From a virus, in the IMG/VR virus record IMGVR_UViG_3300021139_000007, positions 1 through 64,000 of that record: 64,000 nt of DNA. One strand, written 5' to 3'. Every line of letters starts with the position of its first letter. Position 1 is the first letter of the stretch. Under the pieces are notes generated by a model. The model searched no databases. It had not been told where the DNA came from and saw nothing but the letters and a program-made list of their open reading frames with translations. Of the stretch, positions 25,858 through 61,952 are shown one piece after another. The position numbers and the translations under genes are program-made.

Positions 25858-27309
25858 ATGGCAAATCTTAATGTCTTTTATAGCGAAGCGAGTTCATTCT
25901 CGATTGACCAACCAATAGCAGGTCAAACACCCTTAGCTATGTACGATAGTTTGAAACAGGCTGCTTTGCTTCCTGAAATCAGACAGACAAGAAGCGGTGG
26001 TGGAGCACAAGTTATCATGCCTTACGATGAAAAAACTCCCGAAGCGTTGTTTTCTCAAATGCAAGCTGCATTTGGCACAGAAACAAGAACTGCTAAATCA
26101 AGAGAATTTTATTGGTTAGAGTATGACAACTATGATTCATTGACTTTCGTAGTAGGTCAAGTAGCAGGTGGTGTTCCAGCAGCAGGTGTTCCTGTTACAG
26201 CTACAATTGCACCTTTAAGCCGTAGCCAATCAGGTAACTACACAAAACCAATCGAAGGTTTTTACGCATGGATTAAAGAGTTGAACAGACAACAAGTAAT
26301 CATTAGTGCTGTAAGCCCTTCATCCGACCAAGTAACACTAACTCCAATTAACGGTGAGGTTTTGAACCTTACTCAATATGGTCAATACACAATCATCATT
26401 GACCCATTACGTCATTATACATTGGGTGATACAAACAACATTGCTACTGATGGTTTGGTTCTTAACCCACCTACAATGTATAAGGCTTACGCCCAAAAGT
26501 TTGAAAAGGGTATTGCAGTAAACCAAGATGAAATTGACAACTACGTTTACACAAGGGAGTTCAAGGTTATCAAGGGTTTGAATACTCGTGGTGAAGCAGT
26601 TGATTACTTCTATGTACCTGCAATTCATGGTCAATTGGAAGCATTGATTCGTGATAACAAGAACTTGCAAACATTGTTCGGACGTAGGGATAATGGAAAC
26701 CAAAAAGGATTTGATGGTGTTGTTCCAACCGCAGAAAAATACGGTATGTTCAACGCAGGTTACGATATTTTCACAAACGTTTCATTGAAACAAATTTTGT
26801 GGGGTATGATTAAAACCCTTCGCAGAGTGAACGGTTGTAACTCATACACATTAATGCACGATTTCTTGTTTTGGATGGATTGGAGTGAAAGCATTGGTGA
26901 ATTGGTACAAGCATCTAAGCAATCATACAAGTATGCTTTGTTTGGAGAAGGTGGTACAGGTGCTAGAGATTTCAGCTACTTCTCTTTCAGTAAATTTGAA
27001 GCATTTGGATATGAGTTTATCCCTTATATGATTGATGCTTTTGACCACAGACGTTACGGTAACATTCTTGAATATTTTGCATTGTTAATGCCTAATGCCA
27101 AGTTTAAAGACCAAAAGGGCGATACAGTACCGTTCCTTACTTATGTTCACCTTGAAGGTGCTGAACCTGCCAAAGTGGATAATATGTGGAACTATGACTT
27201 TAGAAAACAAGGTGGTAGAACGTTAGACTTCTACGTTTCAACAACATACGGAATTGAAATCCACGCACCTACAAGATTAGGTATCTTAAAGAAAACATCT
27301 ACTCAATAG
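25858..27309 (+). CDS. Major capsid protein
   Basis: 483 residues. Position after a scaffold candidate, high content of Gly/Thr/Asn with few Cys, and a strong terminator directly after the stop fit a highly expressed HK97-fold capsid protein. The N-terminal arm (SSFSIDQPIAG...) and a long central helix region (FKVIKGLNTRGEAVDYFYVP..., LKQILWGMIKTLRRVNG) fit the N-arm and spine-helix order. No cleavage site is obvious. The upstream GroES-like genes may help fold it. Identity is by context and style. Confidence 0.75.
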   Translation: MANLNVFYSEASSFSIDQPIAGQTPLAMYDSLKQAALLPEIRQTRSGGGAQVIMPYDEKTPEALFSQMQAAFGTETRTAKSREFYWLEYDNYDSLTFVVGQVAGGVPAAGVPVTATIAPLSRSQSGNYTKPIEGFYAWIKELNRQQVIISAVSPSSDQVTLTPINGEVLNLTQYGQYTIIIDPLRHYTLGDTNNIATDGLVLNPPTMYKAYAQKFEKGIAVNQDEIDNYVYTREFKVIKGLNTRGEAVDYFYVPAIHGQLEALIRDNKNLQTLFGRRDNGNQKGFDGVVPTAEKYGMFNAGYDIFTNVSLKQILWGMIKTLRRVNGCNSYTLMHDFLFWMDWSESIGELVQASKQSYKYALFGEGGTGARDFSYFSFSKFEAFGYEFIPYMIDAFDHRRYGNILEYFALLMPNAKFKDQKGDTVPFLTYVHLEGAEPAKVDNMWNYDFRKQGGRTLDFYVSTTYGIEIHAPTRLGILKKTSTQ

Positions 27310-32849: not shown

Positions 32850-32861
32850 AAAAATTATTTG

Positions 32862-43900: not shown

Positions 43901-46900
43901 ATTACATGGTTGATGCAACTGATAATCCTGTTTTCATAAGCGATAAGACATTGAAAACACTTACTGATAATGGTGAATTATCAGATTGGATGAAAAGAAA
44001 TGTAGTAAAAGATGTAGTAAAAAGTGATGACAAGCAATTTTCAACTAAATTCAAAGAACAATTAGCTGCAAAAGAAGCAGAACAAAAAGCATCACAACAA
44101 GAGAAAAAGACTACTACAACAGAAAAGCCAACAGAAGAACAAATACTAAAAGACATAAATGAAGGTAATTTAGTTACGTTTACATATAAGTCAAAAGATG
44201 AAGTACCTGATGTTTTTAAGGATAAAATATCAAGCGAAGGTAATGTCAATGGTGAGCAAGTAGTAAGGGTAACAGTACCTAAATCTTTAGCTGACTATGA
44301 ATTATCTAAAGGCACTAAAGATGGGACTATCCCAACAGAAAAGAAAACAGACAAGTATATAACTAAACCCGAAGATAACTTAGAAGGTAAGAAAATATAT
44401 TCTGATTTTGATGGAACTATTATTGATAACGAAACAGGCAAATTACTGCCATTTGGTGAAGAAGTAAAGCAAAGGATAGCTAATGGCGAAGATGTGACGA
44501 TTTTGACCCACAGCAAAGACGAAGAAGGAGAAGCAAAAGGTAGCAATCTTCAACGTATAGCTACTGCATTAGAAATCCCAATAGAAAAAGCAAAAGAAAT
44601 AGTAAAGGAAGATGTAAGCCCAACTGAAAAGATAGGATTAGCAAAAGATGGTGTTTTAATTGACAATAGTACAAGTGTATTAAACCAAGCAAAAGAAGCA
44701 GGTATAGAACATCACGATGCAGACAAATTTAATGGTAGAAAAAAAGAAGCGACAGAAGTAGCACAACCCGAAGGAGAAAAGGTAGTACCTAGTGAAACAG
44801 AAGTAGAAAAGACTACCCCAATAAAAGCAAAAAGTAAACTATCTAAATTTAAAGAAAAATTTGTTGATGCTAAAGTAGAAGAACCTAAAGTAGAAGAAAA
44901 AGTAGTTGATGAAAGAAAATCTAAGCAATTAGAATTAATAAATAAGACTAATCCTGCACCAAATGATTATAATACTTGGGTTAGGTCAGTAGATGATATA
45001 AAAACAGCAAAGGAAGTTTGGGATAATGTACCAGAAGGTGATGAAATGTACCCTGATTTTAAAAAAGATGCAATGAATAATGCACTTGAGAGTGGTGAAA
45101 TTGAAGTCTATTCAAGCTATCCAATAGAAGATGGTACTTTTATTACCCCATCAAAGGATGGTGCAGAAGATTATGCAGGTGGGAAAGGTAAACAGATATA
45201 CTATAAAAAAGTAAAATTAGAAGATGTTGCTTGGCTAGATGAAAGTCAAGGGCAATTCGCACCAATAAAAACAGAAACAACCAAAACAGAAAAAGTAGAA
45301 CCTACTACTACCAAAACGGAAACAACTACTACTGCATTAAAAGATGTCGAGAGTGAAATAACAGAAAAGGAATATAAAAAAGAATATCAATCTTTAATTG
45401 ATAAGAAAAAGTTATTAGATGAAAAAAGGGCTGAACTATTAAGAAGAAAGAAAAATATAACTCCAAGTGAATTTAAAACTATTTCTGATGAAATAGCAAA
45501 AGAAAGTGAAAGTTACGTTAATCAAATGAAAGAGCTTTCTTCTAAAAAAATAATTAAAAGCAACCAACCGCAAATTGAAAAAGTAGAACCTACTGTATCT
45601 AAGGAAGAAACACCTAAAGAAGAACCATTAAAAGAAACATACGATACAGGAAATAAACTTACTGATACTAAAGATTTAAAAGTAGGTGATTATGCAGCTA
45701 TTAAACACCCTAATGGAGTTACTTATGAAGGTAAAGTAACAAGCGTAGGTAGTAAGAATATTAAAATAGAAACAGAAAGTAAACAATACGGTAAACAAGA
45801 AATACAATTACCTAAAAATGATGTTATTGGTTTCTTTAAGCCTAAATTTCAAATAGAAACCCCCGAAACAGAACCTATATCAGAAATGAGAGATATAGTA
45901 AAGGACTATGTAGATGAAGGTATAACTAGCTTAGAAAAAATAAAAGACTTAGTTGCAGAAGAATTAGGTACAGATAAATATGCTGATACAGTAGAAAAGG
46001 CTTTTAATGAGTACACTAAAAAAGAAACAAGAAAAGATATTTCAGAAGCAGTAATAGAAAGAGTAGGTGTTGCTTTAAATAAAATGTTTAAAGGTGGTAC
46101 AGTAGAAACTTTAGGTACAAAAGAAATTAAGGCAAAGGCAAAAGAATTATCAAAAGGGAAACCAATTAAATATCAACTTGAAGATGGTACTAAGATTGAA
46201 GGTAATACTATGCCCGAAATAGTAAATGGGTTTTATTCCCCACTTGAAAAAACTATTAGTGAAACTAAATTCGATAAACTCCCTGCAAAACAATGGATAG
46301 AAAAATTTGCTAAAGGAGAAGAAGCAAAATGGACAGGATTAACAGATTGGTTAGGTAAACAAGAAGGGAGTGTATCTAAAGCAGATATTCAAAAATATCT
46401 TAAAGATAATAGAATAGAAGTAGTAGAGGTTGATAATAGCACAAAAGGGTCTAATAGATTTGTTTTATTAGATAATGAAGGATATAGTGTACATGGTGAA
46501 TCTGTTGAAGTAAATGGTAGTCCTAATAATTTTTTTGCAGACTATAATGATAATGAGATAAATGATTTTGTTTTTAAAGATGGGAGATATGTAAGCGAAA
46601 GTACTGGATTTGAATTAGAGCCATCAGATGACAATAACGATGGGTTGAAATATGGAGAAATCCAATTAGGTGGTAAATCAGATAATTACAAAGAAATACT
46701 TATAACTTTACCTAAAACTTATGAAAATTATAAAAAATTAACGACAGAAGGAAAACAATTCAATTCAACTCACTTTGAAGAACCAAATATAATCGCACAC
46801 CTAAGAATGAATACTAGAACCGATGCAGAAGGTAATAAGGTATTATTCTTAGAGGAGTTGCAAAGTGATTGGGGTCAACAAGGTAAAAAAGAAGGGTTTA

Positions 46901-49900
46901 AAGAAATACCTAATGCCCCTTTTGTTACTGATACTAACAATTGGACAAAACTAGCACTAAAAACGGCTTTAAAAGAAGCAATAAAGCAAGGTTCTGATAA
47001 AATTTCTTGGACAACAGGTGAGCAACAAAATGAAAGATACGATTTATCTAAAAAAGTAGATGAATTAAACTATTATAAAACAGAAAGTGGTAATTATCAT
47101 ATAACAGGAGATAAAGGAGGAGTATCTGTTTCAAGTGGTATTTATAAAGAAAATGAATTAGAGGGGATATTAGGTAAAGAAGTTGCTAAAAAAATAATAA
47201 ACAACGAAGGTGAAAACAAATCTAAGTATAATTCTGTTTTCGGTTATAATGATTATGGAGGTAATCAAGAATATAAATCGTTAACAGGTTCTGATTTGCA
47301 AGTAGGTGGTAAAGGTATGAAAGGGTTTTATGGTTCTCCAAAAGAAGGGAGTTTAGGTATAGTAGGTAATGTAGCTAAATCATTATTTAAACAAGAACCT
47401 AAGACGATAGAAATTAACAAATCAGATGTAGATGTTTCTAAAAGTAAGTTATATGATTTTATTGATAAGATGAACTCAAAATATAATTTACCTGAAAATG
47501 GTAGATTTAAGGTTTTAATTGAAAAAAATGGTACAGAACAAGAGATAGAAACTTACAAAAATTTGAGGAAAGAGTACCAAGATTCAAGTGAAAGACAAGT
47601 TGAATTAGGTAAACCTACAATCCAACACTCAATAGACATAACCCCCGAATTAAAAAAACAAGTACAAGAACAAGGGCAGCCTTTATTTATGAAAGATGCC
47701 GAAGGTAAGATATTAGGATTCACACATGATGGTAAAATTTATCTAAACAAAGATGAAATAAACCCTAATACCCCTATCCACGAAGCAGGACATATATGGG
47801 TAGAACACGCAAAAATAAACAGACCCGACATATACGAAAAAGGTATTGAACTTGTAAGCAAGGAAGGTAACCCATATTTAAAAGAAGTAAAAGAAAATGA
47901 CTTTTATAAAAAAGAATCAGACAAACTAAAAACACAAGCAGAAAGAGATGAATACTTTCAACATGAAGCACTAGCAGCAGCAATAGGGGATAAAGGCGCA
48001 CAATTCGTTACCGAAGCTAAAAAAGCATCTTTTAAAGATTGGTTAAATAACTTATGGGAATCAGTTAAAAAAGCAGTAGGGTTTGAAGGTATTTCAGCAA
48101 AAGACTTACAGAATTTATCTTTTGAAGACTTTGCAAAAAGAGCAGCAAAAGAAATTTTAGACGATACTACCAATTTTGGTAAGGAAACAAAAACAAAGAC
48201 AGATGAAGAAAAAAGTAAAGAAGCCGATGCCAAAACCGAAGGCAAAGGGAATGTAACTGAAAAAGAGGTGACAGTGGGGGGTATTGAAACTCCCCCACCA
48301 CCGATTACGCCAATTTTAGGTTTTGAAAACGTAGGTGGTGAAAGTGAAAAATATACTCAAATAAATAAAGCAACTCAATTACAAGAGGTTGCTGATTTAA
48401 AAGCAAGGTATGATGCACAAGGGGTAAAGGGATGGAGTGAAAGTTTACAGAATGGTCTAAATAGAGTAAAGTCAGAACATCCACATTTAGACCTTTATGA
48501 AGGTGCAAAGAAAGAGTTATATAAGCACCTATCAGACATAGGTAATGGCAGGGTTAGAATGGATGATGAAGACTTAGCTGTAATGTCATATCTAAAGAGA
48601 GAAACAGAACTAAGGATGGCAGCCGTTTCTGATTTAAGATTTAATGAAAATGAGTTAGTTTCTATTGCGGCAGAAAAAGATTACAATATTTTAAAAGACC
48701 AATTTGAGAATACTGTTTTAGCTATAAAAGAAGGTGGAACTACATTAGGTCGTTCATTGGTTTTCTTACAATCAATGTTAGGTTATAATTCAGATACGGG
48801 ATTAATTCTAAAAAGAGGTGAATTAAGAAAGGCGGCAGGTAGAGATTTGACTGAATCTGAATTAGAATATACTGCGAAAGATTGGGTAGAAGAAAGGGCT
48901 AGTCTAATAAAATCACAAGAAATAGAATTAGAAAAGACCAAGAAAGAATTTGAGAACAAGCTACAAAAAGAAATTTCTGAATTAAAGGCAGAAAAAGATA
49001 AAGAATCTAAGAAACAAGTTGTTAATGGAGGGAAAGTAAGCATATCTAAGCCAATTAGAGAAAAGGCTGCATCGGCATTAGAAGCTATTGCTAAAACATT
49101 AGATGAAAAGTTATCTGCTAAATTCCCCGAAGATTCTGATATTAAAAAATCAGGGGTTTCTTTTCAAAAATCTTTTTCAGATAGTATAAAAGAAATAGCT
49201 AAAGACCTTCGTAATAGTGATTTATCAGTAGCAGATATTATTTCTAAGGTAGTAAGAAAATTTGGTGGTGAAGAAAAAGAAAAGTTAAGTTCAGATATTA
49301 AGGATGAATTAAAGAAGTCAGGGATAGAACCTGATTTAGTAGATGAAAAACCGACAATAGAAAAGGCTTTTGATGCAATAAAAGATTTTTCTACAAATCA
49401 TGGTGTTAATGATATAACAAATGATATGGTAGGTAAAAAACTCATTGACAATTATATTAAAGCACATATTGATTTATTTGATGCAAAAGACATTTTGCCT
49501 AACGCATTGAATGAGTTAAAATCAGTATTGCCTAATATTGATGAAAATAAATTGAGGAGGGCTTATTTAAAGAAAGATGAATTTGCTATTAAGACTGAAT
49601 CTAAAATGAAGTCTGAAAAATCAAAAAAAATAATAGAATTAAATAATATAACTAAACTAGAAAACGACTTGAATGACATTAAGCAATTAAAAGCTATAAA
49701 GTCAACACAATTCGCATCCGATAGAGAACGTAGTGATTATGAGAAAGGATTAATAGCAGAGAAGGATGCGTTACTTAAAGAAAAGAAAGATAAAGCTGCA
49801 CAAGCTAAAAAAGAGTATCGTGAACTTGAAACAGAACGTAATAGGCAAATAAGAAAAGTAGAAGAGTTAAAAGAAAAGAAATATAAATTAGAACAAGGAT

Positions 49901-52605
49901 TAAGAGAAAAGAAAAATATTTCTCCTAAAATTGATACCCCAGAAATAGAATCGTTAAAAAAGCAAGTAGAAAAGGCAGACAAAGATTTGCGTGAGCAAGA
50001 AAATGCGACTAAAAAAGCAATAAGAGACGTTGAAAATAAAGCTAAAAAAATAGCACAATACGACAAAGACATTAAAGATATTTCAGAAAGAGGAGAATAT
50101 CTAAAAAGAAACATTGGGAAAAAAGTTCAGCAGATAGATAAAGACATTCAAAAGAAGCAAAAAGAGGTAGAAGATGCTTTAGCTGCTAAAGGATTAAAAA
50201 TTAGCAGAGATGATAAAAGCACAAAATCTTCTTATGAAAGTAGAGCTTCTATTCATAACAGTAGAGTAGATTCGGTTGTTAATGATTTCCAAAATAAAAT
50301 AGATGCCCTACAAAACAGTACTGATAAGGAATCTTTGAAGTATAAATCTATGCTTGAAAGAGTAAAAGAAAAATTATTGAAGTCGAAAATAGATTACAAT
50401 ACGGATGATAAGTTAGACCAAAGCAAAAAATTTGAAACAGCAGAAAAAGCAATGAAGTCTGCCTATGATGCTATTGATGACATAACTAAGTATGAAGATA
50501 AGTTAGCTATTAGAAAAATAATAGATTCTTATTCTAAGGATAAAGAAAAAGATGAACTAGCTATTAAATTAGAAAAGACAAAGAGAAAGTATCGTTCTGA
50601 CATAAAAGAACTTGATAGAAAAATATCATCAAAAGAATTTGATGAACCTAAAAAAGCAGAACCTTTTACAAAATACGATGCTGAATTGATTAGGTTAGAT
50701 AATGAGAGAAGGTTGAAGCAACAATTATTTCAGCAAGCTAAAATGAAAGCAGAATACAATAATAAAAGCAAGTTAAAAACAGCAGCGGAAGTCATAAGGG
50801 GTCTAAATGTATTAGGATTAATATGTAGATTTGGGACTTTAGGGAAAGTAGCCGTTTCAGCGACATTAAAACCACAGTTAAACTATTTAACCAAATATAC
50901 ATTAGGGAGGGCTTTTGACAATTTGCCATTTGAAACAACAAAGGCTATATCTAAAAGGGCTAAATTGGGTGGTGAAAGCAATTCTATTGAAACATTGAAG
51001 AAGTTACAAGAAGTAGTATTTAGGCAATATGGCGAAAGTGGATTAGCTGACATTGCATCAAAATCAAGAGATAAATTCGATTTAGCAGAAAGCAAGTATT
51101 TAGAAGCTAAAAAAGAATTAGATGATATTATTAATAAGTCCTCTAAAGAATATAAAGAAAAAGAGATTCAAGTTAATGAATTAAAAAAGAAACACGATAA
51201 AGCATTAGTAGAAGATTTGGGTAATAATGTTTATGATTTTATTGCAGGTTCATCTATCAAGGAATTTATGGAAGTAATACTCCATAGAGTAAATAAAATA
51301 GAACGTGAATTTGGGCAGATAACACAAGACGAAATGGGGTTGGATGAAAATAAATTATCATTGCAATCAGCAATGTACTTAATTGGGCTAGTTGGTAGAA
51401 CTCACTCCGCTTTAAAGAATTTTTCTGCACGTTCTGAATTTGCCGCAGGTTTTATAGCAAGACTAGAAGGTCATATAGAAGCAGGTACTCCAATAGATGC
51501 GAATAAAATACTAGAAATAGCTAATGAAAGTTACTTAGATTGGGAAAGGGGGAAATATTCCGAAAAAAACAAAGTTACGGAAGCATGGAACGATATAAAT
51601 AAAATGATAGCGAAAGATTATCCTGCCGTAGCTTACGCATTACAATTTGATGTAGCTATTACTCGTATTCCTAACAATATGCTAAAAGAAGTTGTAGTAG
51701 AATATACAGCAGGTGCTTTTGTTTCAGCATATAAAATGATAAAAGCCTATAAGAATGCCAAGAATGAAGCATTTGAACTAGGTTATACCGATAAAAAATC
51801 AGAAGAATTTAAAGAAGTATTAAGAGAAAGGCTAAATGAAATCCCCACTAAAGAAGCTGCTACAATAGCTAGATGTTTTAGAAAAGGTGGATTTGGATTA
51901 GGTATGTTTGCTTTGGCAGCAATAGGTGGAGTTTATTTTAATAAAGCTGCTTTCGGTGGTTTCCCGCATTTAGGTCAAAAAGAAGAAGACAAGAAAAAAG
52001 AAAGGATAGAAAAAATAACAGGGGATAATGATGTAAAAACAGGTCAAATAAGTATAGGAGATTTGACATTGCCAGAGTATGCTTCTAAGTTAATAGAACA
52101 TACACCTGCTTTTTACCCTGCTTTATTGGCATTGGATATGCACGAAGTGTATAGAGATAAAATAAGAAGTGGGGAAATGAAACCAACCGCAGCTAAAGAT
52201 GCAATAGTTTCAAATGTAGAACATTTATTAGAGAGTTCACCACAGATACAATTAGGTATGACTATATTAGCCCCATTAAAAGAAAGGTATCTACCTGCTA
52301 ATTACAAAATAGATGATACAGATGAACATGGAGAGCCAATGAAAAGAGTAATTCTTGAACCTAAAGATTATATAAAGGTGTTAAGTAACAAAAAGGATAT
52401 ACTTAGTGATTTTTGGTTCAAAAAAGCATCTTCTATTATAAGTAATAGTAAGAAAGAAAAAGCATCAATAGAAATCAATAAAAAACTTTCTGATGAACAA
52501 AAATCAGAAAAGAAAAAAGAAATAGACGTTCATGCAGATAAAATGATAGATAAAATATACGAAATGAACAAAAAGAACCCTAGTGGTAAAATGGGTGATA
52601 ATTAA
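40975..52605 (+). CDS. Giant polyvalent injected-type protein (HAD-like, LPD and zincin motifs)
   Basis: 3876 residues, the largest gene here. The N-terminus repeats DEYGIPI twice. A hydrophobic Gly/Ala segment near 665-705 may insert into membrane. A HAD-like region with DFDGT lies near 1142. WTGLTDWL near 1785 and LFLEELQSDWGQQGKK near 1955 with WTTGEQQNERYDL beyond belong to large polyvalent phage proteins. A zincin site HEAGHIWVEH lies near 2269. Long charged coiled coils (~2600-3250) and further hydrophobic segments (~3265, ~3640) follow. Such proteins are carried in the head and injected to act early. A phage RNA polymerase was considered; no such motif seen. Confidence 0.75.
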   Translation: MPQQLDEYGIPIRGSEQSQQKESFDEYGIPIKKKASTTQSTSLDGTKPSSNGGTQTPQLASQSKSTLGGESKDVDYKPSTSFSDRFPIAKDKLGQNITTNGISKESTVMTTPASEIEKQSKLEEKSLNKQKVTDAFATAQKRVNTFYGVLSGKLPYTDITKTDFISGSKDPSKIHDITDRAYEGNLTLEDLNTMNIANKAMLAEPQKTVDALNSMAKNIRKITQLATTETSMPSLIQLNGIEQNIERLQNERSRLELESQTKQGNYPKMLADIDAQIKPLREKEAFIKHSQQAIYNTKYETEYKPNILKNIGDLDEFAEIYIDPKTNQIDVLGQERLRSITEQTMKKGGSDFTSLVHEMGTGILDSKNNVSQTGDINVQFNETSNKLISDLNTMLPIKMATKKYKSDYSNKYPELSGYLDSYDKTHNAINSKEKDAAKEFAKTSVHADVLALQDKFDNQLHQNPKAKEIYSKWDGQVKSGMVTQEIAQKNIERDLENDKDISVLLKGRKEQVDAINRKYAGAYQDYITSVLKSNNPNINIYPDGTIGIKGKSKEESNKIVGDYYKGLNDISNKTLQDIGKKKGENAEEIANRHGLFYTGLHQSTLNILNGTFQGMFNAVGIGGDYSKSLQSEMSVNDISPSKTIQELSKQKGVTAWLNPDYLSYQAGLNTPLMLGAAATGFATGGLGLIPSTIAGATFMTGVNLANRVSELSNTKDDFGNNIPTGEAVHIANVEAQTQFATNLSMMLLHSKLATGDAIAKQTIGKSLATFGKEQIPNALMMGAQGYLGEKAMAKAKGEDYNKNFAEYMLSDEGLAGLSSMTPFLIMDAAKVMNSHIGGIKTWKEFLKSTDESFLKNQQYNQSLRQLHTGNIESWIDAQQIRLFNGDYSNEAEKNELQNSLNYSKSIYKNLKAANLSNTNVNGLYAAHNLALGDIHTEYAKQKGEENNTTLQKYHEDEAKKYREEAFKTLSGEGNFHYMVDATDNPVFISDKTLKTLTDNGELSDWMKRNVVKDVVKSDDKQFSTKFKEQLAAKEAEQKASQQEKKTTTTEKPTEEQILKDINEGNLVTFTYKSKDEVPDVFKDKISSEGNVNGEQVVRVTVPKSLADYELSKGTKDGTIPTEKKTDKYITKPEDNLEGKKIYSDFDGTIIDNETGKLLPFGEEVKQRIANGEDVTILTHSKDEEGEAKGSNLQRIATALEIPIEKAKEIVKEDVSPTEKIGLAKDGVLIDNSTSVLNQAKEAGIEHHDADKFNGRKKEATEVAQPEGEKVVPSETEVEKTTPIKAKSKLSKFKEKFVDAKVEEPKVEEKVVDERKSKQLELINKTNPAPNDYNTWVRSVDDIKTAKEVWDNVPEGDEMYPDFKKDAMNNALESGEIEVYSSYPIEDGTFITPSKDGAEDYAGGKGKQIYYKKVKLEDVAWLDESQGQFAPIKTETTKTEKVEPTTTKTETTTTALKDVESEITEKEYKKEYQSLIDKKKLLDEKRAELLRRKKNITPSEFKTISDEIAKESESYVNQMKELSSKKIIKSNQPQIEKVEPTVSKEETPKEEPLKETYDTGNKLTDTKDLKVGDYAAIKHPNGVTYEGKVTSVGSKNIKIETESKQYGKQEIQLPKNDVIGFFKPKFQIETPETEPISEMRDIVKDYVDEGITSLEKIKDLVAEELGTDKYADTVEKAFNEYTKKETRKDISEAVIERVGVALNKMFKGGTVETLGTKEIKAKAKELSKGKPIKYQLEDGTKIEGNTMPEIVNGFYSPLEKTISETKFDKLPAKQWIEKFAKGEEAKWTGLTDWLGKQEGSVSKADIQKYLKDNRIEVVEVDNSTKGSNRFVLLDNEGYSVHGESVEVNGSPNNFFADYNDNEINDFVFKDGRYVSESTGFELEPSDDNNDGLKYGEIQLGGKSDNYKEILITLPKTYENYKKLTTEGKQFNSTHFEEPNIIAHLRMNTRTDAEGNKVLFLEELQSDWGQQGKKEGFKEIPNAPFVTDTNNWTKLALKTALKEAIKQGSDKISWTTGEQQNERYDLSKKVDELNYYKTESGNYHITGDKGGVSVSSGIYKENELEGILGKEVAKKIINNEGENKSKYNSVFGYNDYGGNQEYKSLTGSDLQVGGKGMKGFYGSPKEGSLGIVGNVAKSLFKQEPKTIEINKSDVDVSKSKLYDFIDKMNSKYNLPENGRFKVLIEKNGTEQEIETYKNLRKEYQDSSERQVELGKPTIQHSIDITPELKKQVQEQGQPLFMKDAEGKILGFTHDGKIYLNKDEINPNTPIHEAGHIWVEHAKINRPDIYEKGIELVSKEGNPYLKEVKENDFYKKESDKLKTQAERDEYFQHEALAAAIGDKGAQFVTEAKKASFKDWLNNLWESVKKAVGFEGISAKDLQNLSFEDFAKRAAKEILDDTTNFGKETKTKTDEEKSKEADAKTEGKGNVTEKEVTVGGIETPPPPITPILGFENVGGESEKYTQINKATQLQEVADLKARYDAQGVKGWSESLQNGLNRVKSEHPHLDLYEGAKKELYKHLSDIGNGRVRMDDEDLAVMSYLKRETELRMAAVSDLRFNENELVSIAAEKDYNILKDQFENTVLAIKEGGTTLGRSLVFLQSMLGYNSDTGLILKRGELRKAAGRDLTESELEYTAKDWVEERASLIKSQEIELEKTKKEFENKLQKEISELKAEKDKESKKQVVNGGKVSISKPIREKAASALEAIAKTLDEKLSAKFPEDSDIKKSGVSFQKSFSDSIKEIAKDLRNSDLSVADIISKVVRKFGGEEKEKLSSDIKDELKKSGIEPDLVDEKPTIEKAFDAIKDFSTNHGVNDITNDMVGKKLIDNYIKAHIDLFDAKDILPNALNELKSVLPNIDENKLRRAYLKKDEFAIKTESKMKSEKSKKIIELNNITKLENDLNDIKQLKAIKSTQFASDRERSDYEKGLIAEKDALLKEKKDKAAQAKKEYRELETERNRQIRKVEELKEKKYKLEQGLREKKNISPKIDTPEIESLKKQVEKADKDLREQENATKKAIRDVENKAKKIAQYDKDIKDISERGEYLKRNIGKKVQQIDKDIQKKQKEVEDALAAKGLKISRDDKSTKSSYESRASIHNSRVDSVVNDFQNKIDALQNSTDKESLKYKSMLERVKEKLLKSKIDYNTDDKLDQSKKFETAEKAMKSAYDAIDDITKYEDKLAIRKIIDSYSKDKEKDELAIKLEKTKRKYRSDIKELDRKISSKEFDEPKKAEPFTKYDAELIRLDNERRLKQQLFQQAKMKAEYNNKSKLKTAAEVIRGLNVLGLICRFGTLGKVAVSATLKPQLNYLTKYTLGRAFDNLPFETTKAISKRAKLGGESNSIETLKKLQEVVFRQYGESGLADIASKSRDKFDLAESKYLEAKKELDDIINKSSKEYKEKEIQVNELKKKHDKALVEDLGNNVYDFIAGSSIKEFMEVILHRVNKIEREFGQITQDEMGLDENKLSLQSAMYLIGLVGRTHSALKNFSARSEFAAGFIARLEGHIEAGTPIDANKILEIANESYLDWERGKYSEKNKVTEAWNDINKMIAKDYPAVAYALQFDVAITRIPNNMLKEVVVEYTAGAFVSAYKMIKAYKNAKNEAFELGYTDKKSEEFKEVLRERLNEIPTKEAATIARCFRKGGFGLGMFALAAIGGVYFNKAAFGGFPHLGQKEEDKKKERIEKITGDNDVKTGQISIGDLTLPEYASKLIEHTPAFYPALLALDMHEVYRDKIRSGEMKPTAAKDAIVSNVEHLLESSPQIQLGMTILAPLKERYLPANYKIDDTDEHGEPMKRVILEPKDYIKVLSNKKDILSDFWFKKASSIISNSKKEKASIEINKKLSDEQKSEKKKEIDVHADKMIDKIYEMNKKNPSGKMGDN

Positions 52606-54970: not shown

Positions 54971-55510
54971 ATGACAATGCTTTCGGAAAGGTGCGTAGTG
55001 ATAGCAAGAGAATACTTAGAAGATAAGAACATAAATGACAGTAGGGAAATACAAGAGCCTATTTTCAATTCAAAACTTAGTTCTTTTAATTGGTCACCTG
55101 CTTTTGGTGCTGCTTCTGTTTTTTGTGAAATGGTTTGGAAGAAAACATTAGGCAGAGAAAATTCAGGAGAGTGGAGACAGTTGGATAGGATATTTTCCCC
55201 TTCACCTATTGCTACTCATGCTAACTTTAGAGGGTGTAGAGATTATAAGTCAGGAAATATACCCGAAGTAGGTGCTTTAGCAATTTGGAGACGTGGGAAT
55301 AGTTGGCAAGGGTCAATAGGTATAGTTTCAGAAGTTTCAGAAGATAAAGAAACGTTTTCAATAATAGAGGGCAGGGCTTTTGTAGGTAGCGAAAAGGAAG
55401 GGCTGATACAAGTATTAGAAAGCAAAGGGAAAAAGATAAATTTGCCCTTTAGAAACGACAAAGGAAACCTATTAGGGTTTATTTACATGAAGTACGAAGA
55501 AATTAGGTAA
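54971..55510 (+). CDS. CHAP-like protein lacking the catalytic residues
   Basis: 179 residues. The fold pattern is that of phage CHAP/TIGR02594-type peptidoglycan hydrolases: a helical N-terminus, FNWSPAFGAASVFCEMVW, then IPEVGALAIWRRGNSWQGSIGIVSEV and a late IIEGRAF strand. In active relatives the first block reads PWCAAF and the second GNSxWQGHVG. Here the catalytic Cys position holds Ser, Pro or Ala depending on alignment, and the His of WQGHVG is Ser. It may be a dead hydrolase reused as a wall-binding or virion protein. An alternative start lies at 54977. Confidence 0.6.
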   Translation: MTMLSERCVVIAREYLEDKNINDSREIQEPIFNSKLSSFNWSPAFGAASVFCEMVWKKTLGRENSGEWRQLDRIFSPSPIATHANFRGCRDYKSGNIPEVGALAIWRRGNSWQGSIGIVSEVSEDKETFSIIEGRAFVGSEKEGLIQVLESKGKKINLPFRNDKGNLLGFIYMKYEEIR

Positions 55511-55841: not shown

Positions 55842-56375
55842 ATGCCTTGTTCAGTAGAACTTAATGATACATCTAAGATACCCATACTTACAGGGTGTCC
55901 TTCCGATAACGAATACTTTTTGGTTATCGGTGCTGCTAATGGTGCAGGTCAAGGTGGTTATGGTGTTAGAAGTTGGTTAGCATTACAACAATGTTTAGCA
56001 AGTGCAATTTCTTTCCCTGAAATAGATACAATAGTAGGTCAAGGCAATCCTGTAATTTTGCCAACAGGATGTACTTCTTATACAATAAATGCAAAGGTTC
56101 TACCAAAATCAGTAAAGTGTTTTGTAGATGGTCAAAGAATATTTCCCGTTGTATCAGACCAATTGTACATAGATATTCAATATTCTACTACCTTTGTCAC
56201 GATTTCATTCTTTAATTACTCAATAGATGATGAAACAGTAAATCTAGGGCTACAATATGGACAAAAAGTAATTATTGAATTTGCAGTATCAGGAAGTACA
56301 CCATTAGGGATAAATTTAACAACAGAAGATGGTTTTGACATAACAACAGAGGACGGACAAAACATAACAATTTAA
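55842..56375 (+). CDS. Small beta-rich structural protein
   Basis: 177 residues (MPCSVELNDTSKIPILTGCP...). It is Gly/Thr/Ile-rich, and its C-terminus repeats a short motif (LTTEDGFDITTEDGQNIT). A beta-rich adaptor or collar-type protein fits. Two bases separate it from its upstream neighbour. No family recognised. Confidence 0.5.
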   Translation: MPCSVELNDTSKIPILTGCPSDNEYFLVIGAANGAGQGGYGVRSWLALQQCLASAISFPEIDTIVGQGNPVILPTGCTSYTINAKVLPKSVKCFVDGQRIFPVVSDQLYIDIQYSTTFVTISFFNYSIDDETVNLGLQYGQKVIIEFAVSGSTPLGINLTTEDGFDITTEDGQNITI

Positions 56376-56383
56376 AATAAATT

Positions 56384-57793
56384 ATGAAGAAGATATTTTT
56401 AGCGTTTTTAATTCTAATTTCTGGTAGGGGTATTTCCCAAGTATCAATTTCCCAACTACCAACTTATACAGGAAGCCCTGTAGGGACATTTGTACCCTTA
56501 GTACAAGGTGGTTCTACTAAAAAAATAGACGGTTCTAAATTAGGACAAGTTTCTGATTCAACTAAAATACCATACTTAGCAAAGAATAATAACTTTACAG
56601 GTAATGATACTTTCCCTTCAATAGTTTGGGCTTCTAATGGTAGCGATACTTTAGCTACTCAAAGTTATGTAAGAAGTGTAGGTGGAGGAGGTGGAGGTTC
56701 TAATATTGATACTACTAGAATACCATTCCTTGCTAAAAACAACACTTTTACAGGGGATAATAGTTTTACAACATTAGAACTTAATTCTCTTACAGCAAGT
56801 TCAGTTATTAACTTAGGAGGATATGGGATTAATTCATTTTCTAATGATACATCTTTGTCTAGTTCACCACAATACAGTTTGCCAACTCAAAATGCAGTAA
56901 CAGGGTATGTAGGGAATCATGCTCAATTAAAATCAAACCTATCTAATGATGGGACAATGGCAGCTAACTCAACAACTCTTTATCCAACTCAACAAGCTAC
57001 TAGGACTTATGCAGCAGGATTAGTAGTAGGGTTATTAAATGATAGAGGTAGTTATAATGCAAGTAGTAATGTATATCCATCAACAGGGGGGAGTGGTACA
57101 GCAGGGGCAATTCTAAAAGGTGACATTTGGTATATTAATACAGCGGGAACTTTAGGTGGCACATCTGTTTCAGTAGGTGCAAGTGTGAGGGCTTTAGCCA
57201 ATAGCCCTGCACAAACATCATCAAATTGGGATATTCTTAATGTAGGATTAGGGTATGTTCCTGAAAATGTGGCAAATAAATCTACTAGCGTTTCTAGTGA
57301 TAGTGGGAGTACTACAAAATATCCGACAACACAATCGGTTGCAAGATATTCACAATCACTTAGTAATTTAGCTACTACTATTACGCCTTCTGATTCAAGT
57401 AGTAATACTCTTTATCCTTCTGTAAATGCAGTAAAAAGATATGTAGATTCAAATAGTGGTGTATTACCTTATAAAGTGTATAATGCGATTATTAGTGTTG
57501 ATGGTAGCGGTGTTACAGTTAATTCATCTTATAATACATTTAATGGCATTACTTTTAATTGGTATTTAGTAGGTAACGGGAGAATTGAGTTAACTTCAAG
57601 TTCATCTATTTTCACCACAAATAAGACATACTATTTTGGTCAAAGTTTAAATAATGGGGGTGTAATGTATTTAACTAGCCCTGAATTAAATTTTAATAAT
57701 CGTATATTTATAGATATTATAAAAGCTATTGATAATAGCCAAACATCTACACCAAGTGTAACATTCCCAATAGAAATCAGAGTTTACCCATAA
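56384..57793 (+). CDS. Exported fibre-like protein with Q-rule signal peptide
   Basis: 469 residues. KKIFLAFLILIS is a Sec signal core, and cleavage after GIS would expose Gln (GIS|QVSIS). The mature part opens LPTYTGSPVGTFVPLVQGG as in Bacteroidota phage fibres, then repeats an AKNN-FTG block twice (near 65 and 120) and YPTQ/SVARYS-type strands, ending in a globular region from ~350. It is the first of four genes in a row with such signals. A secreted fibre, adhesin or decoy is possible; a virion fibre with an N-terminal hydrophobic anchor is the alternative. Confidence 0.65.
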   Translation: MKKIFLAFLILISGRGISQVSISQLPTYTGSPVGTFVPLVQGGSTKKIDGSKLGQVSDSTKIPYLAKNNNFTGNDTFPSIVWASNGSDTLATQSYVRSVGGGGGGSNIDTTRIPFLAKNNTFTGDNSFTTLELNSLTASSVINLGGYGINSFSNDTSLSSSPQYSLPTQNAVTGYVGNHAQLKSNLSNDGTMAANSTTLYPTQQATRTYAAGLVVGLLNDRGSYNASSNVYPSTGGSGTAGAILKGDIWYINTAGTLGGTSVSVGASVRALANSPAQTSSNWDILNVGLGYVPENVANKSTSVSSDSGSTTKYPTTQSVARYSQSLSNLATTITPSDSSSNTLYPSVNAVKRYVDSNSGVLPYKVYNAIISVDGSGVTVNSSYNTFNGITFNWYLVGNGRIELTSSSSIFTTNKTYYFGQSLNNGGVMYLTSPELNFNNRIFIDIIKAIDNSQTSTPSVTFPIEIRVYP

Positions 57794-57812
57794 TAAATAT
57801 ACAAACAAGCAA

Positions 57813-59027
57813 ATGAAGATACTATTAACTATATTATTAAGTTTACTTTTGATAGTGGGGTTTTCTCAACAAATCCCTAATGGTAATCCTATCACTAATG
57901 CCCCTAACTCATGGGTATCTTATGGTTATACTAGAGATAGTGGTAAGATATTTATAGTAAGAGATACCTTTAATGCACGTTATCCAACAGTAGTAATGAG
58001 ACCTGATGGGATTCTTTGGAAAACATTAGGTAATGGTGCTTATTGGTACATGGTAGGTAGTTCAGCAATAGATACACTTCACTCTTTAGTTACTCATACA
58101 GCTTTAAATGACAGCCTTTTAAGATATTTAAAAGATACGGTATTTTGTCATTATGATACTGTTTTTTGGGAAAGGGGCGGTAGTACTTATTACATAAGAG
58201 TAGATACCTTTTCTTCTAATCCAACATTATATGGGGCTAACTTTGGTAAGTATGTTGCAGGTAATACCCCGAATTGGAAGGGACTTTCTTCAAGAGAAGC
58301 AATTATAGATGCCATAACACAATGTAACCATCCAAATTATATTTCACCAACTGTAACCATCAATAGTAGTACTTCATTTGGTAGTTATGAATATGGAACA
58401 AATTTAGGTTCTATAACACTAAGTAATACATTTGTGCCTAATAATGGGGGTAGTGATACTGCTAATGTTTATTATCAAAACAGTAGTGCTTTAGGAGGTA
58501 ATACCACCACTATATCATCATTGACATCAACTCAATATTTTTATGTAAATTCAGCATATCAACAAGGGGCTTGTATAGCTAACAATTGTGGCACAATAGA
58601 TTGTTACGGAAGAATAAATGCAGGGAATGTAAATAGTGGGACGAGTTCTTATTCTGTAGGTTATAGGCGTTATTATGGGTGGATAAGCGATACTACGGGG
58701 ATAACTACAGGAGGACAAGATGCGGCAATAAGGGCTGTTATAGATAGTACGCAATTTAGTGTATCTGCTTCTTTTGGAAGCTCGTTATCACCTATTAATA
58801 CGGGGAATCCTCCTAGTGGGTCTGCTTATTATATTTTTGGGTATGTAAGTACAAGCCCAACAATGAGTGATATTGTAATAAATGGTACTCCATTAGGCAT
58901 TAATGCCTTCAATGTAAATACTAGGTCAACATTTACTAATTCACAAGGAGTTACATTGCCTATAAGAGTGTATTACAATAAAAACAAACAATACGGTTCT
59001 TTTTCAGTTTATACAACATCTAATTAA
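57813..59027 (+). CDS. Exported fibre-like protein with Q-rule signal peptide
   Basis: 404 residues. KILLTILLSLLLIVGFSQ gives a strong signal peptide with predicted cleavage before Gln (GFS|QQIPN). The mature chain is Thr/Ser/Gly/Tyr-rich with repeated strand patterns (TISSLTSTQYFYVNSAYQQG). No internal Met offers an unexported start before residue ~60. It lies 19 bases after the preceding exported gene and its stop abuts the next start. Confidence 0.65.
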   Translation: MKILLTILLSLLLIVGFSQQIPNGNPITNAPNSWVSYGYTRDSGKIFIVRDTFNARYPTVVMRPDGILWKTLGNGAYWYMVGSSAIDTLHSLVTHTALNDSLLRYLKDTVFCHYDTVFWERGGSTYYIRVDTFSSNPTLYGANFGKYVAGNTPNWKGLSSREAIIDAITQCNHPNYISPTVTINSSTSFGSYEYGTNLGSITLSNTFVPNNGGSDTANVYYQNSSALGGNTTTISSLTSTQYFYVNSAYQQGACIANNCGTIDCYGRINAGNVNSGTSSYSVGYRRYYGWISDTTGITTGGQDAAIRAVIDSTQFSVSASFGSSLSPINTGNPPSGSAYYIFGYVSTSPTMSDIVINGTPLGINAFNVNTRSTFTNSQGVTLPIRVYYNKNKQYGSFSVYTTSN

Positions 59028-60956
59028 ATGAAGAAACTAATATTTATATTATCATTATTTTTATCATTATTTGCTAAAGGACAAGTAGTGTATAATGGAT
59101 TAGGTGGATATGTTCCTAATGGTAACTACGCAGGTTATTATGCCCCTTATATGCAAGGTGCAACAAAAATAGCTTACGACACAACAGCAAGAAACGCCAT
59201 CCCGTCTTATTATAGGGATACGTTAACTTTCATGTGTTATACAGTAGTAGATAGCTCTTTTTGGATATTGAGAGGAGGTATAGCTAATTCCAATTACAGC
59301 AAAATATCTACTTTCAGCAAAAGTTTTATTCCTTATAATGCAATATTACAAAATGGGAATAAATTTGGCGCAACAGAAATAATAGGAACTAACGACTATT
59401 ATAACGTTCAAATTAATAGAGGTGGGACACAGGCATTACTGATTGATACATTTGGATTGACCAATACAGCAGGTAACTTTAGGATAAATACGGGGTCGGG
59501 CAATGCTACCTTTTACGATTTCGGTGCTAGTCACACAATGCAGTTACCTAGTGATACCCCTTCAATTGCACCACCAATATTATACACAAACTTATTAGCT
59601 TATAAAAATGGGACTTTATATGTGAAAGACACGGCTACATCTCACTCATGGAATTATGGCAGGTTAGCTTATTACAGAGATTTAACGGGTTACGGGAACA
59701 CCTACTCCCAAGGCGTAACACCATCAAGTTCAAAAGTGTCAATCCCATTCTATAATGGCACGCATTCAATAAGTTATACTAATAACGCTGTAATGGATAG
59801 TGTCACGGGGGCTATATATGTCAATAATAAGAGGTTGGCGGATACAACAGATTTGGCTACAAGGTTAAAATATACTGATACAAGTGGGATGTTATTGGCT
59901 TATGGTACGGCTATTAATGGAAAACAAGCTACTTTGGTTTCAGGTACAAATATAAAAACCGTTAATGGAACAAGTGTTTTGGGTAGTGGCGATATTGCCG
60001 TTAGTGGAGGGCTTACAGGTGCAGGAACGGTATCGAGTACAGTAGTGCCATTGACAGTATGGAGTGCAACTAACAGCAAGGTAAGTAGTACAGGAACATA
60101 CGCAAGTTGGGATACTGTAAACCATAGACTAGGAATAAATAATACATCCCCTTCCTATAATTTAGATGTCACAGGAGATACTAGAATATTATCTACTAGC
60201 GGAAGTAATCAAGTTTTATTTCATGCGGGAGTAAGTGCAGCACCGTATATCAATTTATCCTATTCGGGGGTAGTTAATTTATTTTTAGCGGGAATCGGTA
60301 ACGGTACAAATGCAGGATTAGGGTTATATAACAGTAGTAATCTTACTCAATATTGCTCATTAAGTGCAGCGGATATATTAGGGAACAGTGGAATATTACA
60401 AATACAAGGCAATAGTTCAGATGCGTATGGTTCGTTTGGGTCGAGTAACGGGAAATCATCATATGTACGATTTACAGAATCGGGGGTGGGGTATAGAGGT
60501 TTAATAGGTTTTGCTGGCGGGTCGGGTAATCTTCAATTTAGGTTAGGGGCTAGCAATATGACTAGCGGCACTCAAACAATGACACTAGCATCTTCAACAG
60601 GTGCATTGTTATTAGGAACGGCTACTGATGACGCAGTTAATCTATTGCAAATTAATGGAAGTGCAAAAGCAACTTCATTTAATTCAAACGCAACACAAAC
60701 AACGGTAAGCGCATCAACAAGTGGAACGGTAATATTTAGTGAGCCTTTTGCAGGGAGTAGCTATAAAAAAGTTGTTATCTATTGTAATGGTGCAACAGGG
60801 ACTGCTAGTTATACTTTCCCTACTGCATTAACTTATACGCCTACAGTAGTTTCGACAAGCGGACTTGCAACAAGTTTAGTTACTTCAATAAGTACAACGG
60901 CGGTGACTGTTACGGGCGCAGCTTCAACAGGATTTTTAATTTTAGAAGGATATTAA
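59028..60956 (+). CDS. Exported large fibre-like protein with Q-rule signal peptide
   Basis: 642 residues. [18 protein letters not shown] predicts cleavage after AKG exposing Gln. The central part is modular ([17 protein letters not shown]) and the last ~110 residues ([48 protein letters not shown]) form a beta-rich C-terminal knob of the kind that ends Bacteroidota phage tail fibres. It starts at the base after the previous stop. The knob argues for receptor binding; the signal argues for export, which is unusual for a virion protein. Confidence 0.7.
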
Positions 60957-60958
60957 TT

Positions 60959-61339
60959 ATGAAAAAGTTATTTATTAGTTTGCTACTTATCGCAAGTTTA
61001 GGGGTTAAAGCCCAATATGTGCCAACAATAGACACATCATTTCACCCTGTTATTGATACTACCTTGCAAGGCATTACAGCGTGTCATATTTCGCCTATAA
61101 AGTCAGCGTTTAGCAATGATTCAGCTACTTTAATTTCAGTAGTTAGTGTAAGCGACAATTTAGAGAGTTTGGCGAATTTGAATTTTAGTTTTTTAAATGC
61201 GAATCAATCTGTAATAAAATCATTCACGTTTACTATTCAAGGTCAAAACTATGTGGATTGGAATAGTAACGTGTATTTATTCAAATTGTTTGCAACGTAT
61301 CTAAATAATCAATACGGAGTAAAATTAACATTCAAATAA
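60959..61339 (+). CDS. Small exported protein with Q-rule signal peptide
   Basis: 126 residues. KKLFISLLLIASLGVKAQ is a clear signal peptide with predicted cleavage VKA|QYVPT. The mature part is ~107 residues, beta-rich, with a possible metal or ligand pocket (DTSFHPVIDTT). It lies two bases after the large fibre-like gene. A fibre chaperone, an adhesin or an exclusion protein on the periplasmic side are all conceivable; none is shown. Confidence 0.65.
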   Translation: MKKLFISLLLIASLGVKAQYVPTIDTSFHPVIDTTLQGITACHISPIKSAFSNDSATLISVVSVSDNLESLANLNFSFLNANQSVIKSFTFTIQGQNYVDWNSNVYLFKLFATYLNNQYGVKLTFK

Positions 61340-61352: not shown

Positions 61353-61589
61353 ATGACATGGCAGGAAATGGCAGCAATTAGTACGGTAGGAGTTGCAGGG
61401 GTAACTATTATAGGCTTTATTTTGGCGAATCACTCGAACATTCAAGTAAGACTTAAAGCTCTTGAAATTGAAGTTACGGGGTTAAAAGAAGCGCAAGAAA
61501 AGACTGATAGTAAGTTTGATAGGATAATGGATAAGCTCGAAAGTATATCAATAGCACTTAGTAATAAAGTGGACAAACATAACGGATAA
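61353..61589 (+). CDS. Membrane protein with coiled coil, XhlA-like lysis candidate
   Basis: 78 residues. One membrane span at ~7-27 (AISTVGVAGVTIIGFILANH) is followed by a charged heptad-like coiled coil (VRLKALEIEVTGLKEAQEKTDSKFDRIMDKLES). The architecture resembles XhlA-type lysis helpers (there with the membrane segment at the other end). It precedes a holin candidate and a spanin candidate. Confidence 0.55.
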   Translation: MTWQEMAAISTVGVAGVTIIGFILANHSNIQVRLKALEIEVTGLKEAQEKTDSKFDRIMDKLESISIALSNKVDKHNG

Positions 61590-61634: not shown

Positions 61635-61952
61635 ATGATGTGGCAAATATATATCATAATAGTTAAAGTGGCTTACATTATATTTGCGATGTGGTTAGGG
61701 TTTCAAATTATAAATAATAAATTTATGCAAAGCAAAATTTTCACAGTAGGAGTTACCGATTTTTTACATGGCTTATTTATTGCCATTGTAGGTGCAGTCT
61801 TAACAGTTGTAAGCACTTCATTGAGTGCAGGGTCATTGACTTTTGATTACAAGGCGATTGGCACAACGGCAGCAATTGCAGGATTAAGCTATGTTAGTAA
61901 GAAGTTCCTAAGTAACAATCAAGGGGCTATTTTAACGCCTGATTCAAAGTAA
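61635..61952 (+). CDS. Holin candidate
   Basis: 105 residues (ATG at 61635 or 61638). Three hydrophobic segments (~4-26, 38-62, 72-90) with short charged ends (VSKKFLSNNQ) fit a class I-type holin. It would form holes in the inner membrane to trigger lysis and release the endolysin. Context supports it: a spanin candidate and a lysozyme-like gene follow. Confidence 0.6.
   Translation: MMWQIYIIIVKVAYIIFAMWLGFQIINNKFMQSKIFTVGVTDFLHGLFIAIVGAVLTVVSTSLSAGSLTFDYKAIGTTAAIAGLSYVSKKFLSNNQGAILTPDSK

What the first reader, a model, noticed from the sequence alone, without database searches (positions are those of the whole stretch)
56384..61339. Four consecutive phage proteins exported under the Bacteroidota Q-rule
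Four genes in a row (469, 404, 642 and 126 residues) each begin with a Sec signal peptide predicted to be cut just before Gln (GIS|Q, GFS|Q, AKG|Q, VKA|Q), as in many Bacteroidota secreted proteins. Three resemble tail fibres, one with a typical fibre knob. Virion proteins are normally not exported, so this could be a secreted receptor-blocking or decoy system, an envelope-displayed exclusion system, or a virion-assembly route through the periplasm. This is the best candidate here for an undescribed system.
Basis: partly seen in the sequence, partly recalled or inferred. Interest (0 to 1): 0.85.

Follow-up and report, generated by a model that had tools for sequence, protein, structure and literature searches.

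The report
Phage tail fibres carrying export signals
Four neighbouring genes in this Bacteroidota phage encode tail-fibre-like proteins that all start with a signal telling the bacterium to export them, and because related proteins with the same signals are recorded in purified particles of other phages, these viruses may finish their tails with parts that took a detour through the periplasm, a route not described for tailed phages.

Summary
In detail: four adjacent ORFs (469, 404, 642, 126 aa; 56384-61339) each start with a clear Sec signal peptide followed by Gln. In the 64-kb window a rule-based caller, even without a Gln bonus, finds no other SPase-I-type signals; the only further call is a spanin lipoprotein.

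It is more than one locus. The same SP|Q cassettes (1-5 genes, next to lysis genes) recur in unrelated environmental phages and Mucilaginibacter prophages. The 642-aa protein's C-terminal knob also ends ordinary fibres without signals.

The strongest evidence comes from isolated Cellulophaga phages. In phi10:1, phi19:1 and phi18:3, eleven SP-bearing fibre/spike proteins are annotated as virion structural proteins "based on experimental MS/MS". One pectate-lyase spike domain is a virion protein with a signal peptide in some C. baltica phages and without one in others.

Best explanation (about 0.55): host-recognition fibres/spikes exported by host Sec, cut before Gln, matured in the periplasm, and joined to tails when lysis mixes compartments. 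No T9SS sorting domain or lipobox was found, so surface decoy or exclusion roles before lysis are less likely. Export, cleavage and late joining are inferred, not shown. Prior art found: five Q-rule phage proteins of unknown function in Porphyromonas.

The parts
56384..57793 (+). SP|Q fibre-like gene 1 (469 aa); signal peptide 56384-56437 (18 aa, ..GIS|Q). Its C-terminal ~130 aa (PYKVYNAIIS...IRVYP) recurs in relatives
   Evidence: non-SP homologue of the C-terminal part in Flavobacterium phage elemo (30% over 100 aa, E=6e-6 in a single comparison)
57813..59027 (+). SP|Q fibre-like gene 2 (404 aa); signal peptide 57813-57866 (..GFS|Q); 5 Cys in the mature part
   Evidence: positional counterparts with nearly the same SP in L007/L015 (393 aa, C-terminus also shared) and L012/L013 (322 aa)
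59028..60956 (+). SP|Q tail-fibre-like gene 3 (642 aa); signal peptide 59028-59081 (..AKG|Q)
60690..60953 (+). C-terminal fibre knob of gene 3 (88 aa, ..[22 protein letters not shown])
   Evidence: 63-89% identical to knobs on SP-bearing and SP-less fibres
60959..61339 (+). SP|Q small protein (126 aa), last gene of the cassette; signal peptide 60959-61012 (..VKA|Q); predicted beta4-alpha fold; function unknown
   Evidence: family of 6, 34-69% identity, SP kept in all; pLDDT 75; no Met codon after the SP, so no ATG-started cytoplasmic form
55842..56375 (+). Last gene before the cassette, no signal peptide (177 aa); candidate docking/adaptor protein (inference from position only)
   Evidence: a similar C-terminal motif (TFVTI(S/T)FFNYSID..GLQYG) ends the 265-aa protein at the same place in L012/L015
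55522..55839 (+). Small non-SP protein (105 aa) upstream of the cassette
   Evidence: position only
54971..55510 (+). CHAP-like peptidase/endolysin candidate (179 aa)
   Evidence: Pfam CHAP E=2.4e-5, just below the curated cut-off
61353..61589 (+). Holin-like gene: one transmembrane segment plus coiled coil (78 aa)
   Evidence: sequence reading; only weak hits
61635..61952 (+). Holin-like membrane protein (105 aa)
   Evidence: sequence reading; similar protein at the same place in L005
62615..63124 (+). Lipoprotein with C-terminal transmembrane segment, unimolecular-spanin-like (169 aa, lipobox LIG|C)
   Evidence: similar proteins near the cassette in L003-L006, L011, L012

Best explanation
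The four genes are the host-recognition module of a tailed Bacteroidota phage: three fibre/spike subunits and one small companion protein, made as Sec precursors. The host Sec system moves them across the inner membrane, signal peptidase I cuts them before Gln, and host glutaminyl cyclase caps that Gln as pyroglutamate. They fold, and perhaps become O-glycosylated, in the periplasm while heads and tails assemble in the cytoplasm. When the neighbouring holin genes open the inner membrane, cytoplasmic particles and periplasmic fibres mix and the fibres dock through their mature N-terminal anchor domains before the spanin opens the outer membrane. Shown: conserved SP|Q N-termini, cassette position next to lysis genes, kinship with ordinary fibres. 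Shown by deposited annotation: virion location of cassettes of the same design in three other phages. Inferred: actual export, cleavage, capping, and joining at lysis.
For: (1) Signal peptides confined to this cassette plus a spanin in the window; in whole or partial contigs of relatives they lie mostly in the fibre cassette and spanin, with a few other lipoproteins and small SP|Q genes. (2) The same design recurs in phages whose upstream tail genes differ (L005, L011, L012, L014) and in Mucilaginibacter prophages; N-terminal anchors differ between phages but each keeps its own SP|Q. (3) Virion location: phi10:1 gp091-094, phi19:1 gp101-104 and phi18:3 gp085-087 are annotated 'structural protein, annotation based on experimental MS/MS proteomics analysis' and all 11 start with signal peptides. 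Other SP|Q proteins of phi10:1 (23531-23845) and phi19:1 (22972-23331) lack that flag. (4) Natural swap: the pectate-lyase spike domain (aa ~117-774) sits behind an SP|Q anchor in phi10:1/phi19:1/phi19:3/phi13:2/Ingeline and behind an SP-less anchor in phi14:2 (44% identity, MS/MS virion protein) and phi17:2/phi4:1 (49%), all Cellulophaga phages. (5) Same with the gene-3 knob: of 38 non-redundant knob fibres, 17 of 23 in SD-less contigs have SP against 4 of 15 in SD-using contigs (Fisher p=0.007); +1 is Gln in 19 of 21. (6) No T9SS domain, no lipobox on the four. (7) Gene 4 has no Met after its signal, so no ATG-started cytoplasmic isoform. (8) Weak: the Bacteroidota O-glycosylation motif D[ST][AILVMT] is enriched 1.85x in SP+ SD-less fibres (control D[ST][other] 0.79x), not in SP- fibres (0.67x and 0.80x) (per-protein p=0.015); Mucilaginibacter exported proteins 1.30x, others 0.90x.
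Against: The MS/MS statements are annotation lines in GenBank records; the primary paper could not be read, so co-purification of abundant exported proteins cannot be excluded and mature N-termini are unknown. No such data exist for the window phage, and no sequence homology between its four proteins and the Cellulophaga cassette proteins was found, so the link is one of design and position. Several Bacteroidota phages do without SP on their fibres: crAss001, phi14:2, phi38:1, 11b, FCL-2, elemo, B124-14, P12002L, P12024S, 6H. The glycosylation motif is depleted (0.37x) in the Cellulophaga SP proteins, so that line is not general. Tailed-phage fibres normally attach in the cytoplasm, and joining two compartments at lysis has no precedent known to me.
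Confidence: 0.55

Rival explanations
1. Exported but not virion parts: the proteins are released at lysis as free fibres or depolymerases that strip or mask surface glycans (clearing the way for progeny or blocking re-adsorption to debris), and the virion MS/MS detections are co-purification.
For: SP|Q is consistent with real export. Cassettes move between phages with different tails, easier if no docking is needed. Some members are enzymes or lectins: pectate lyase and Laminin_G_3, E=4e-20.
Against: Eleven cassette proteins in three phages carry the MS/MS virion flag while other SP|Q proteins of phi10:1 and phi19:1 do not. After the two large tail proteins, phi10:1 and phi19:1 have no other annotated fibre or spike candidates. 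SP-less homologues of the same spike domain are virion proteins.
Confidence: 0.18
2. Dual targeting: the signal peptide is used inefficiently, so part of the protein stays in the cytoplasm and builds virions while the rest is exported and acts as a decoy or depolymerase.
For: Would explain virion detection without a two-compartment joining step.
Against: The signals look strong (long h-regions, charged n-regions). Most cassette genes lack an early internal ATG and gene 4 has none. An uncleaved hydrophobic N-terminus would need to be tolerated in the fibre anchor.
Confidence: 0.14
3. The N-terminal hydrophobic segment is not a working export signal in infection: it is a membrane tether or a remnant from host secreted fibre-like genes, and the proteins assemble in the cytoplasm.
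For: Capture of N-termini from host secreted proteins is plausible; Bacteroidota chromosomes encode many secreted fibre-like proteins (own knowledge).
Against: Gln sits at or within 1-3 residues of the predicted cut in nearly all cassette proteins and at +1 in 19 of 21 dereplicated fibres; a remnant would not be expected to keep n-, h- and c-regions across so many different anchors.
Confidence: 0.1
4. Envelope-displayed superinfection-exclusion or receptor-blocking system.
For: Export signals; phage-encoded exported blockers exist elsewhere (own knowledge, e.g. the T5 Llp lipoprotein).
Against: No lipobox and no T9SS sorting domain on the four proteins, so no predicted way to the outer surface before lysis; late-gene position by the lysis genes; virion flags of cassette counterparts.
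Confidence: 0.03

Closest known systems
Cellulophaga phage phi10:1 / phi19:1 (Assiduviridae) and phi18:3 (Pachyviridae) distal tail cassettes (gp091-095; gp101-104; gp085-087)
   Same: Consecutive SP-bearing fibre/spike genes with Gln at or near the cut, at the end of the structural block; members annotated as MS/MS virion proteins
   Different: No sequence match to the window's proteins was reported in the phage-record searches with P0001 and P0003; no companion of the gene-4 type identified; signal peptides not mentioned in the records
Ordinary fibres sharing the gene-3 knob (L009/L042, 557 aa; L010/L050, 1000 aa)
   Same: C-terminal knob 63-67% identical
   Different: Ordinary N-termini without signal peptide
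Porphyromonas gingivalis phages (proposed Nixviridae) with five Q-rule proteins of unknown function (PMC10367356)
   Same: Phage genes predicted to use host Sec and the Q-rule
   Different: Described there as unknown proteins that might modify the outer membrane; not linked to fibres or virions in the text read
Flavobacterium phages elemo and Cellulophaga phage phi38:1 (nearest isolates by terminase)
   Same: TerL 22-29% identical; elemo has the same kind of giant structural gene and a homologue of gene 1's C-terminus
   Different: Their fibre genes lack signal peptides

Membership tests
Sec / signal peptidase I substrate following the Bacteroidetes Q-rule | Positive n-region, hydrophobic h-region, small residues at -3/-1 | tested here: met
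   All four, with and without Gln bonus; SignalP not available
Sec / signal peptidase I substrate following the Bacteroidetes Q-rule | Gln at mature +1 | tested here: met
   4/4 in the window when the Q-rule is used as a prior; without it the best cut shifts 1-3 residues in three of four
Sec / signal peptidase I substrate following the Bacteroidetes Q-rule | Actual cleavage and pyroglutamate formation | not testable with these tools
   Needs N-terminal proteomics
Tailed-phage tail fibre / tailspike | Homology to known fibre domains | tested here: met
   Gene 3 knob shared with SP-less fibres; gene 1 C-terminus with an elemo protein; the L005 knob fibre matches PHROG tail spike and virion structural families. 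Gene 2: shared cassette position and part of its sequence only. Gene 4: not shown
Tailed-phage tail fibre / tailspike | Present in the virion | tested here: inconclusive
   Not known for this phage; cassette counterparts flagged MS/MS in three isolates
Tailed-phage tail fibre / tailspike | Trimeric, N-terminal anchor plus variable C-terminal receptor domain | tested here: inconclusive
   Anchor conserved and C-terminus swapped in Cellulophaga spikes (Nekkels vs phi10:1: first 132 aa 95.5% identical); trimerisation not testable
Type IX secretion (T9SS) cargo | Conserved C-terminal sorting domain | tested here: not met
   No Pfam match at E<=1 for such a domain in any of the four
Surface lipoprotein receptor blocker (T5 Llp type) | Lipobox Cys at the cleavage site | tested here: not met
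   All four have Gln, none Cys, at the cut
Superinfection exclusion / decoy system | Blocks adsorption or infection when expressed | not testable with these tools
   Needs experiment

The most novel reading that the evidence does not exclude
A two-compartment assembly route for tailed phages: heads and tails form in the cytoplasm, while the whole host-recognition module is exported by host Sec, matured in the periplasm (pyroglutamate, perhaps O-glycans), and joins the particle at lysis. The route would be an exchangeable cassette used by several Bacteroidota phage families. SP-bearing knob fibres in four SD-using contigs (L040, L044, L045, L058) would extend it to other phyla.
Probability: 0.5. 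Interest if true: 0.92.

Novelty: new variant of a known kind. Interest (0 to 1): 0.76.

Why it matters
Tailed-phage assembly is taught as wholly cytoplasmic. If a large group of Bacteroidota phages builds its receptor-binding parts in the periplasm, then host range, phage engineering and heterologous fibre production for this phylum need export, signal-peptide cleavage and glutaminyl cyclase, and fibre glycosylation becomes possible. It also gives a sequence handle, SP|Q next to lysis genes, for finding the host-range proteins of poorly annotated Bacteroidota phages. The question can be tested directly with isolated Cellulophaga phages, perhaps by re-searching existing virion mass-spectrometry data.

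Tried and rejected
PHROGs and Pfam on the four proteins: nothing significant. Knob against PDB sequences: nothing. AlphaFold of gene 4: modest model (pLDDT 75), no PDB hit at E<=0.001, four hits at that level among uncharacterised uncultured-phage proteins, two of them short (79-83 aa). AlphaFold of gene 1 C-terminus: too poor to search (pLDDT 50). Gene 2 as a probe in viral contigs found no relative, though a positional counterpart appeared in loci found with other genes. Alignment A1 was too diverse for a collection scan. The 483-aa protein at 25858-27309 (capsid candidate by position): no match in phage records. O-glycosylation motif: supportive in freshwater/soil-type phages, opposite in Cellulophaga, so kept only as a weak line. 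Rejected: chance or mis-called starts; T9SS display; lipoprotein receptor blocker. Literature searches found no description of exported tailed-phage fibres, but the library lacks most subscription papers, including Holmfeldt 2013.
Full report
WHAT IS THERE. The window is bases 1-64000 of a 69,289-base IMG/VR virus record. It carries a terminase related to those of Flavobacterium elemo and Cellulophaga phi38:1 phages (22-29% identity), a structural block with a 1579-aa protein (weak crAss muzzle-domain hit) and a 3876-aa protein, then a CHAP-like protein, two small non-SP genes, the four genes of the finding, two holin-like genes and a unimolecular-spanin-like lipoprotein. All four N-termini are textbook Sec signals followed by Gln. 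A rule-based caller over every six-frame ORF >=60 aa finds only these four plus the spanin lipoprotein; without its Gln bonus and at threshold 3.9 it finds the same five. On 400 kb of a Mucilaginibacter genome it of 309 genes as SPase-I type, 73% of them with +1 Gln. Adjacency by chance is about 8e-5. The exact cut depends partly on using the Q-rule as a prior.

IT IS A RECURRENT CASSETTE. Probing viral contigs with genes 1, 3 and 4 gave relatives with the same layout: one to five SP|Q genes, then in most cases a u-spanin-like lipoprotein. L007/L015 has all four; L012/L013 has five including a Laminin_G_3 lectin; L003/L004, L005/L006 and L011 have a knob fibre plus the gene-4 homologue. The genes upstream of these cassettes differ, so the cassettes travel between different tails. 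The gene-4 family keeps its SP while identity to the window copy falls to 34%. In contigs of relatives SPs lie mostly in the fibre cassette and spanin, with a few other lipoproteins and small SP|Q genes. Two Mucilaginibacter genomes and a Bacteroidetes MAG hold cassettes of this kind; one prophage has three paralogous SP|Q fibres.

THE SAME KNOB WITH AND WITHOUT SIGNAL. The 88-aa knob that ends gene 3 also ends fibres with ordinary N-termini, e.g. L009 (557 aa, next to a terminase-like and a portal-like gene) and L010 (1000 aa). In 38 non-redundant knob fibres, SP presence goes with lack of Shine-Dalgarno motifs, a Bacteroidota trait (17 of 23 against 4 of 15; Fisher p=0.007), and 19 of 21 SPs have +1 Gln. 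SD-lack was estimated from few genes per contig, so the host split is rough. Three SD-using contigs (L040, L045, L058) still carry SP|Q fibres, so the trait may not be limited to Bacteroidota.

VIRION EVIDENCE FROM ISOLATES. GenBank records of Cellulophaga phages flag proteins found by virion MS/MS. In phi10:1, gp091-094, in phi19:1, gp101-104 and in phi18:3, gp085-087 carry that flag and start with signal peptides. Other SP|Q proteins of phi10:1 and phi19:1 are not flagged. The phi10:1 gp093 spike domain is found behind the same SP|Q anchor in phi19:1, phi19:3 and phi13:2, behind another SP|Q anchor in Ingeline, and behind SP-less anchors in phi14:2 and phi17:2/phi4:1; the SP-less phi14:2 form is also MS/MS-flagged. 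In Nekkels the first 132 residues including the SP are 95.5% identical to phi10:1 while the rest is replaced. So the SP belongs to a conserved anchor, and neither receptor-binding domain nor host species dictates export. The primary proteomics paper was not held, so these flags are taken from the records. The Cellulophaga cassettes resemble the window's in design and position, not in detectable sequence.

WHERE WOULD THE PROTEINS GO. No T9SS sorting domain and no lipobox, so the predicted destination is the periplasm. Gene 4 has no Met after its signal, so an ATG-started cytoplasmic form is excluded for it. The genes lie directly before the holin-like genes. The simplest scheme consistent with both export and virion location is joining at lysis, when the inner membrane opens. 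This step is inference.

GLYCOSYLATION HINT. The published Bacteroidota O-glycosylation motif D[ST][AILVMT] (own knowledge) is enriched 3.2x in the four proteins and 1.85x in SP+ SD-less knob fibres, but not in SP-less fibres with the same knob (0.67x and 0.80x), while D[ST] followed by other residues is not enriched in the SP+ set (0.79x). Per protein the difference is modest (medians 1.41 vs 0.64, p=0.015). Mucilaginibacter exported proteins show 1.30x, others 0.90x. In Cellulophaga SP proteins the motif is depleted, 0.37x. I treat this as suggestive only.

LIMITS. Not all Bacteroidota phages do this: crAss001, phi14:2, phi38:1, 11b, FCL-2, elemo, B124-14, P12002L, P12024S and 6H fibres have no SP by the same caller. 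SignalP was not available. No experiment shows export, cleavage or late docking.

COMPARISON WITH KNOWN. The literature at hand mentions five Q-rule proteins of unknown function in P. gingivalis phages (cited again in PMC10653852) but nothing on exported tailed-phage fibres. The proteins are therefore best filed as tail fibre/spike-like proteins (genes 1 and 3 by homology, gene 2 by position, gene 4 unassigned) made by a variant, apparently undescribed route.

Noticed in passing
L002:8974-9579 (record position 64974-65579, just beyond the window): A fifth SP|Q protein (201 aa), a DNA/RNA non-specific endonuclease (Pfam Endonuclease_NS E=6.6e-29): a phage-encoded exported nuclease.
   Followed up: partly
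40975-52605: A 3876-aa protein (11.6 kb gene) at the end of the structural block; elemo Flavobacterium phages have a giant structural gene of similar size.
   Followed up: no
32859-37598: 1579-aa protein with a sub-threshold match to the crAssvirus muzzle C-terminal domain (E=0.0018), suggesting distant kinship of the tail to crAss-like phages.
   Followed up: no
L040, L044, L045, L058: SP-bearing knob fibres in contigs that use Shine-Dalgarno motifs: exported fibres may occur in phages of other phyla.
   Followed up: partly
L034 / G001:C8 around 170-178 kb (Mucilaginibacter sp. L196): Prophage with three paralogous SP|Q fibres sharing the mature start QGTWLGVTG or QETWLGVTG: a possible inducible test system and possibly a fibre-switching array.
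   Followed up: no
G003:10798-11286 and G004:15646-16116: Another SP|Q gene of about 160 aa outside the fibre cassette in two related phages; function unknown.
   Followed up: no
L031 (contig CAIPPE010000042.1): A contig binned as Methylococcaceae carries an SD-poor SP|Q fibre cassette of Bacteroidota type; probably a misbinned phage contig.
   Followed up: no
Cellulophaga phages phi10:1, phi19:1, Nekkels, phi19:3, phi46:3, phi13:2, phi18:3, Ingeline: SP|Q fibre/spike cassettes are shared across three phage families (Assiduviridae, Pachyviridae, Duneviridae), i.e. apparently exchanged horizontally.
   Followed up: yes
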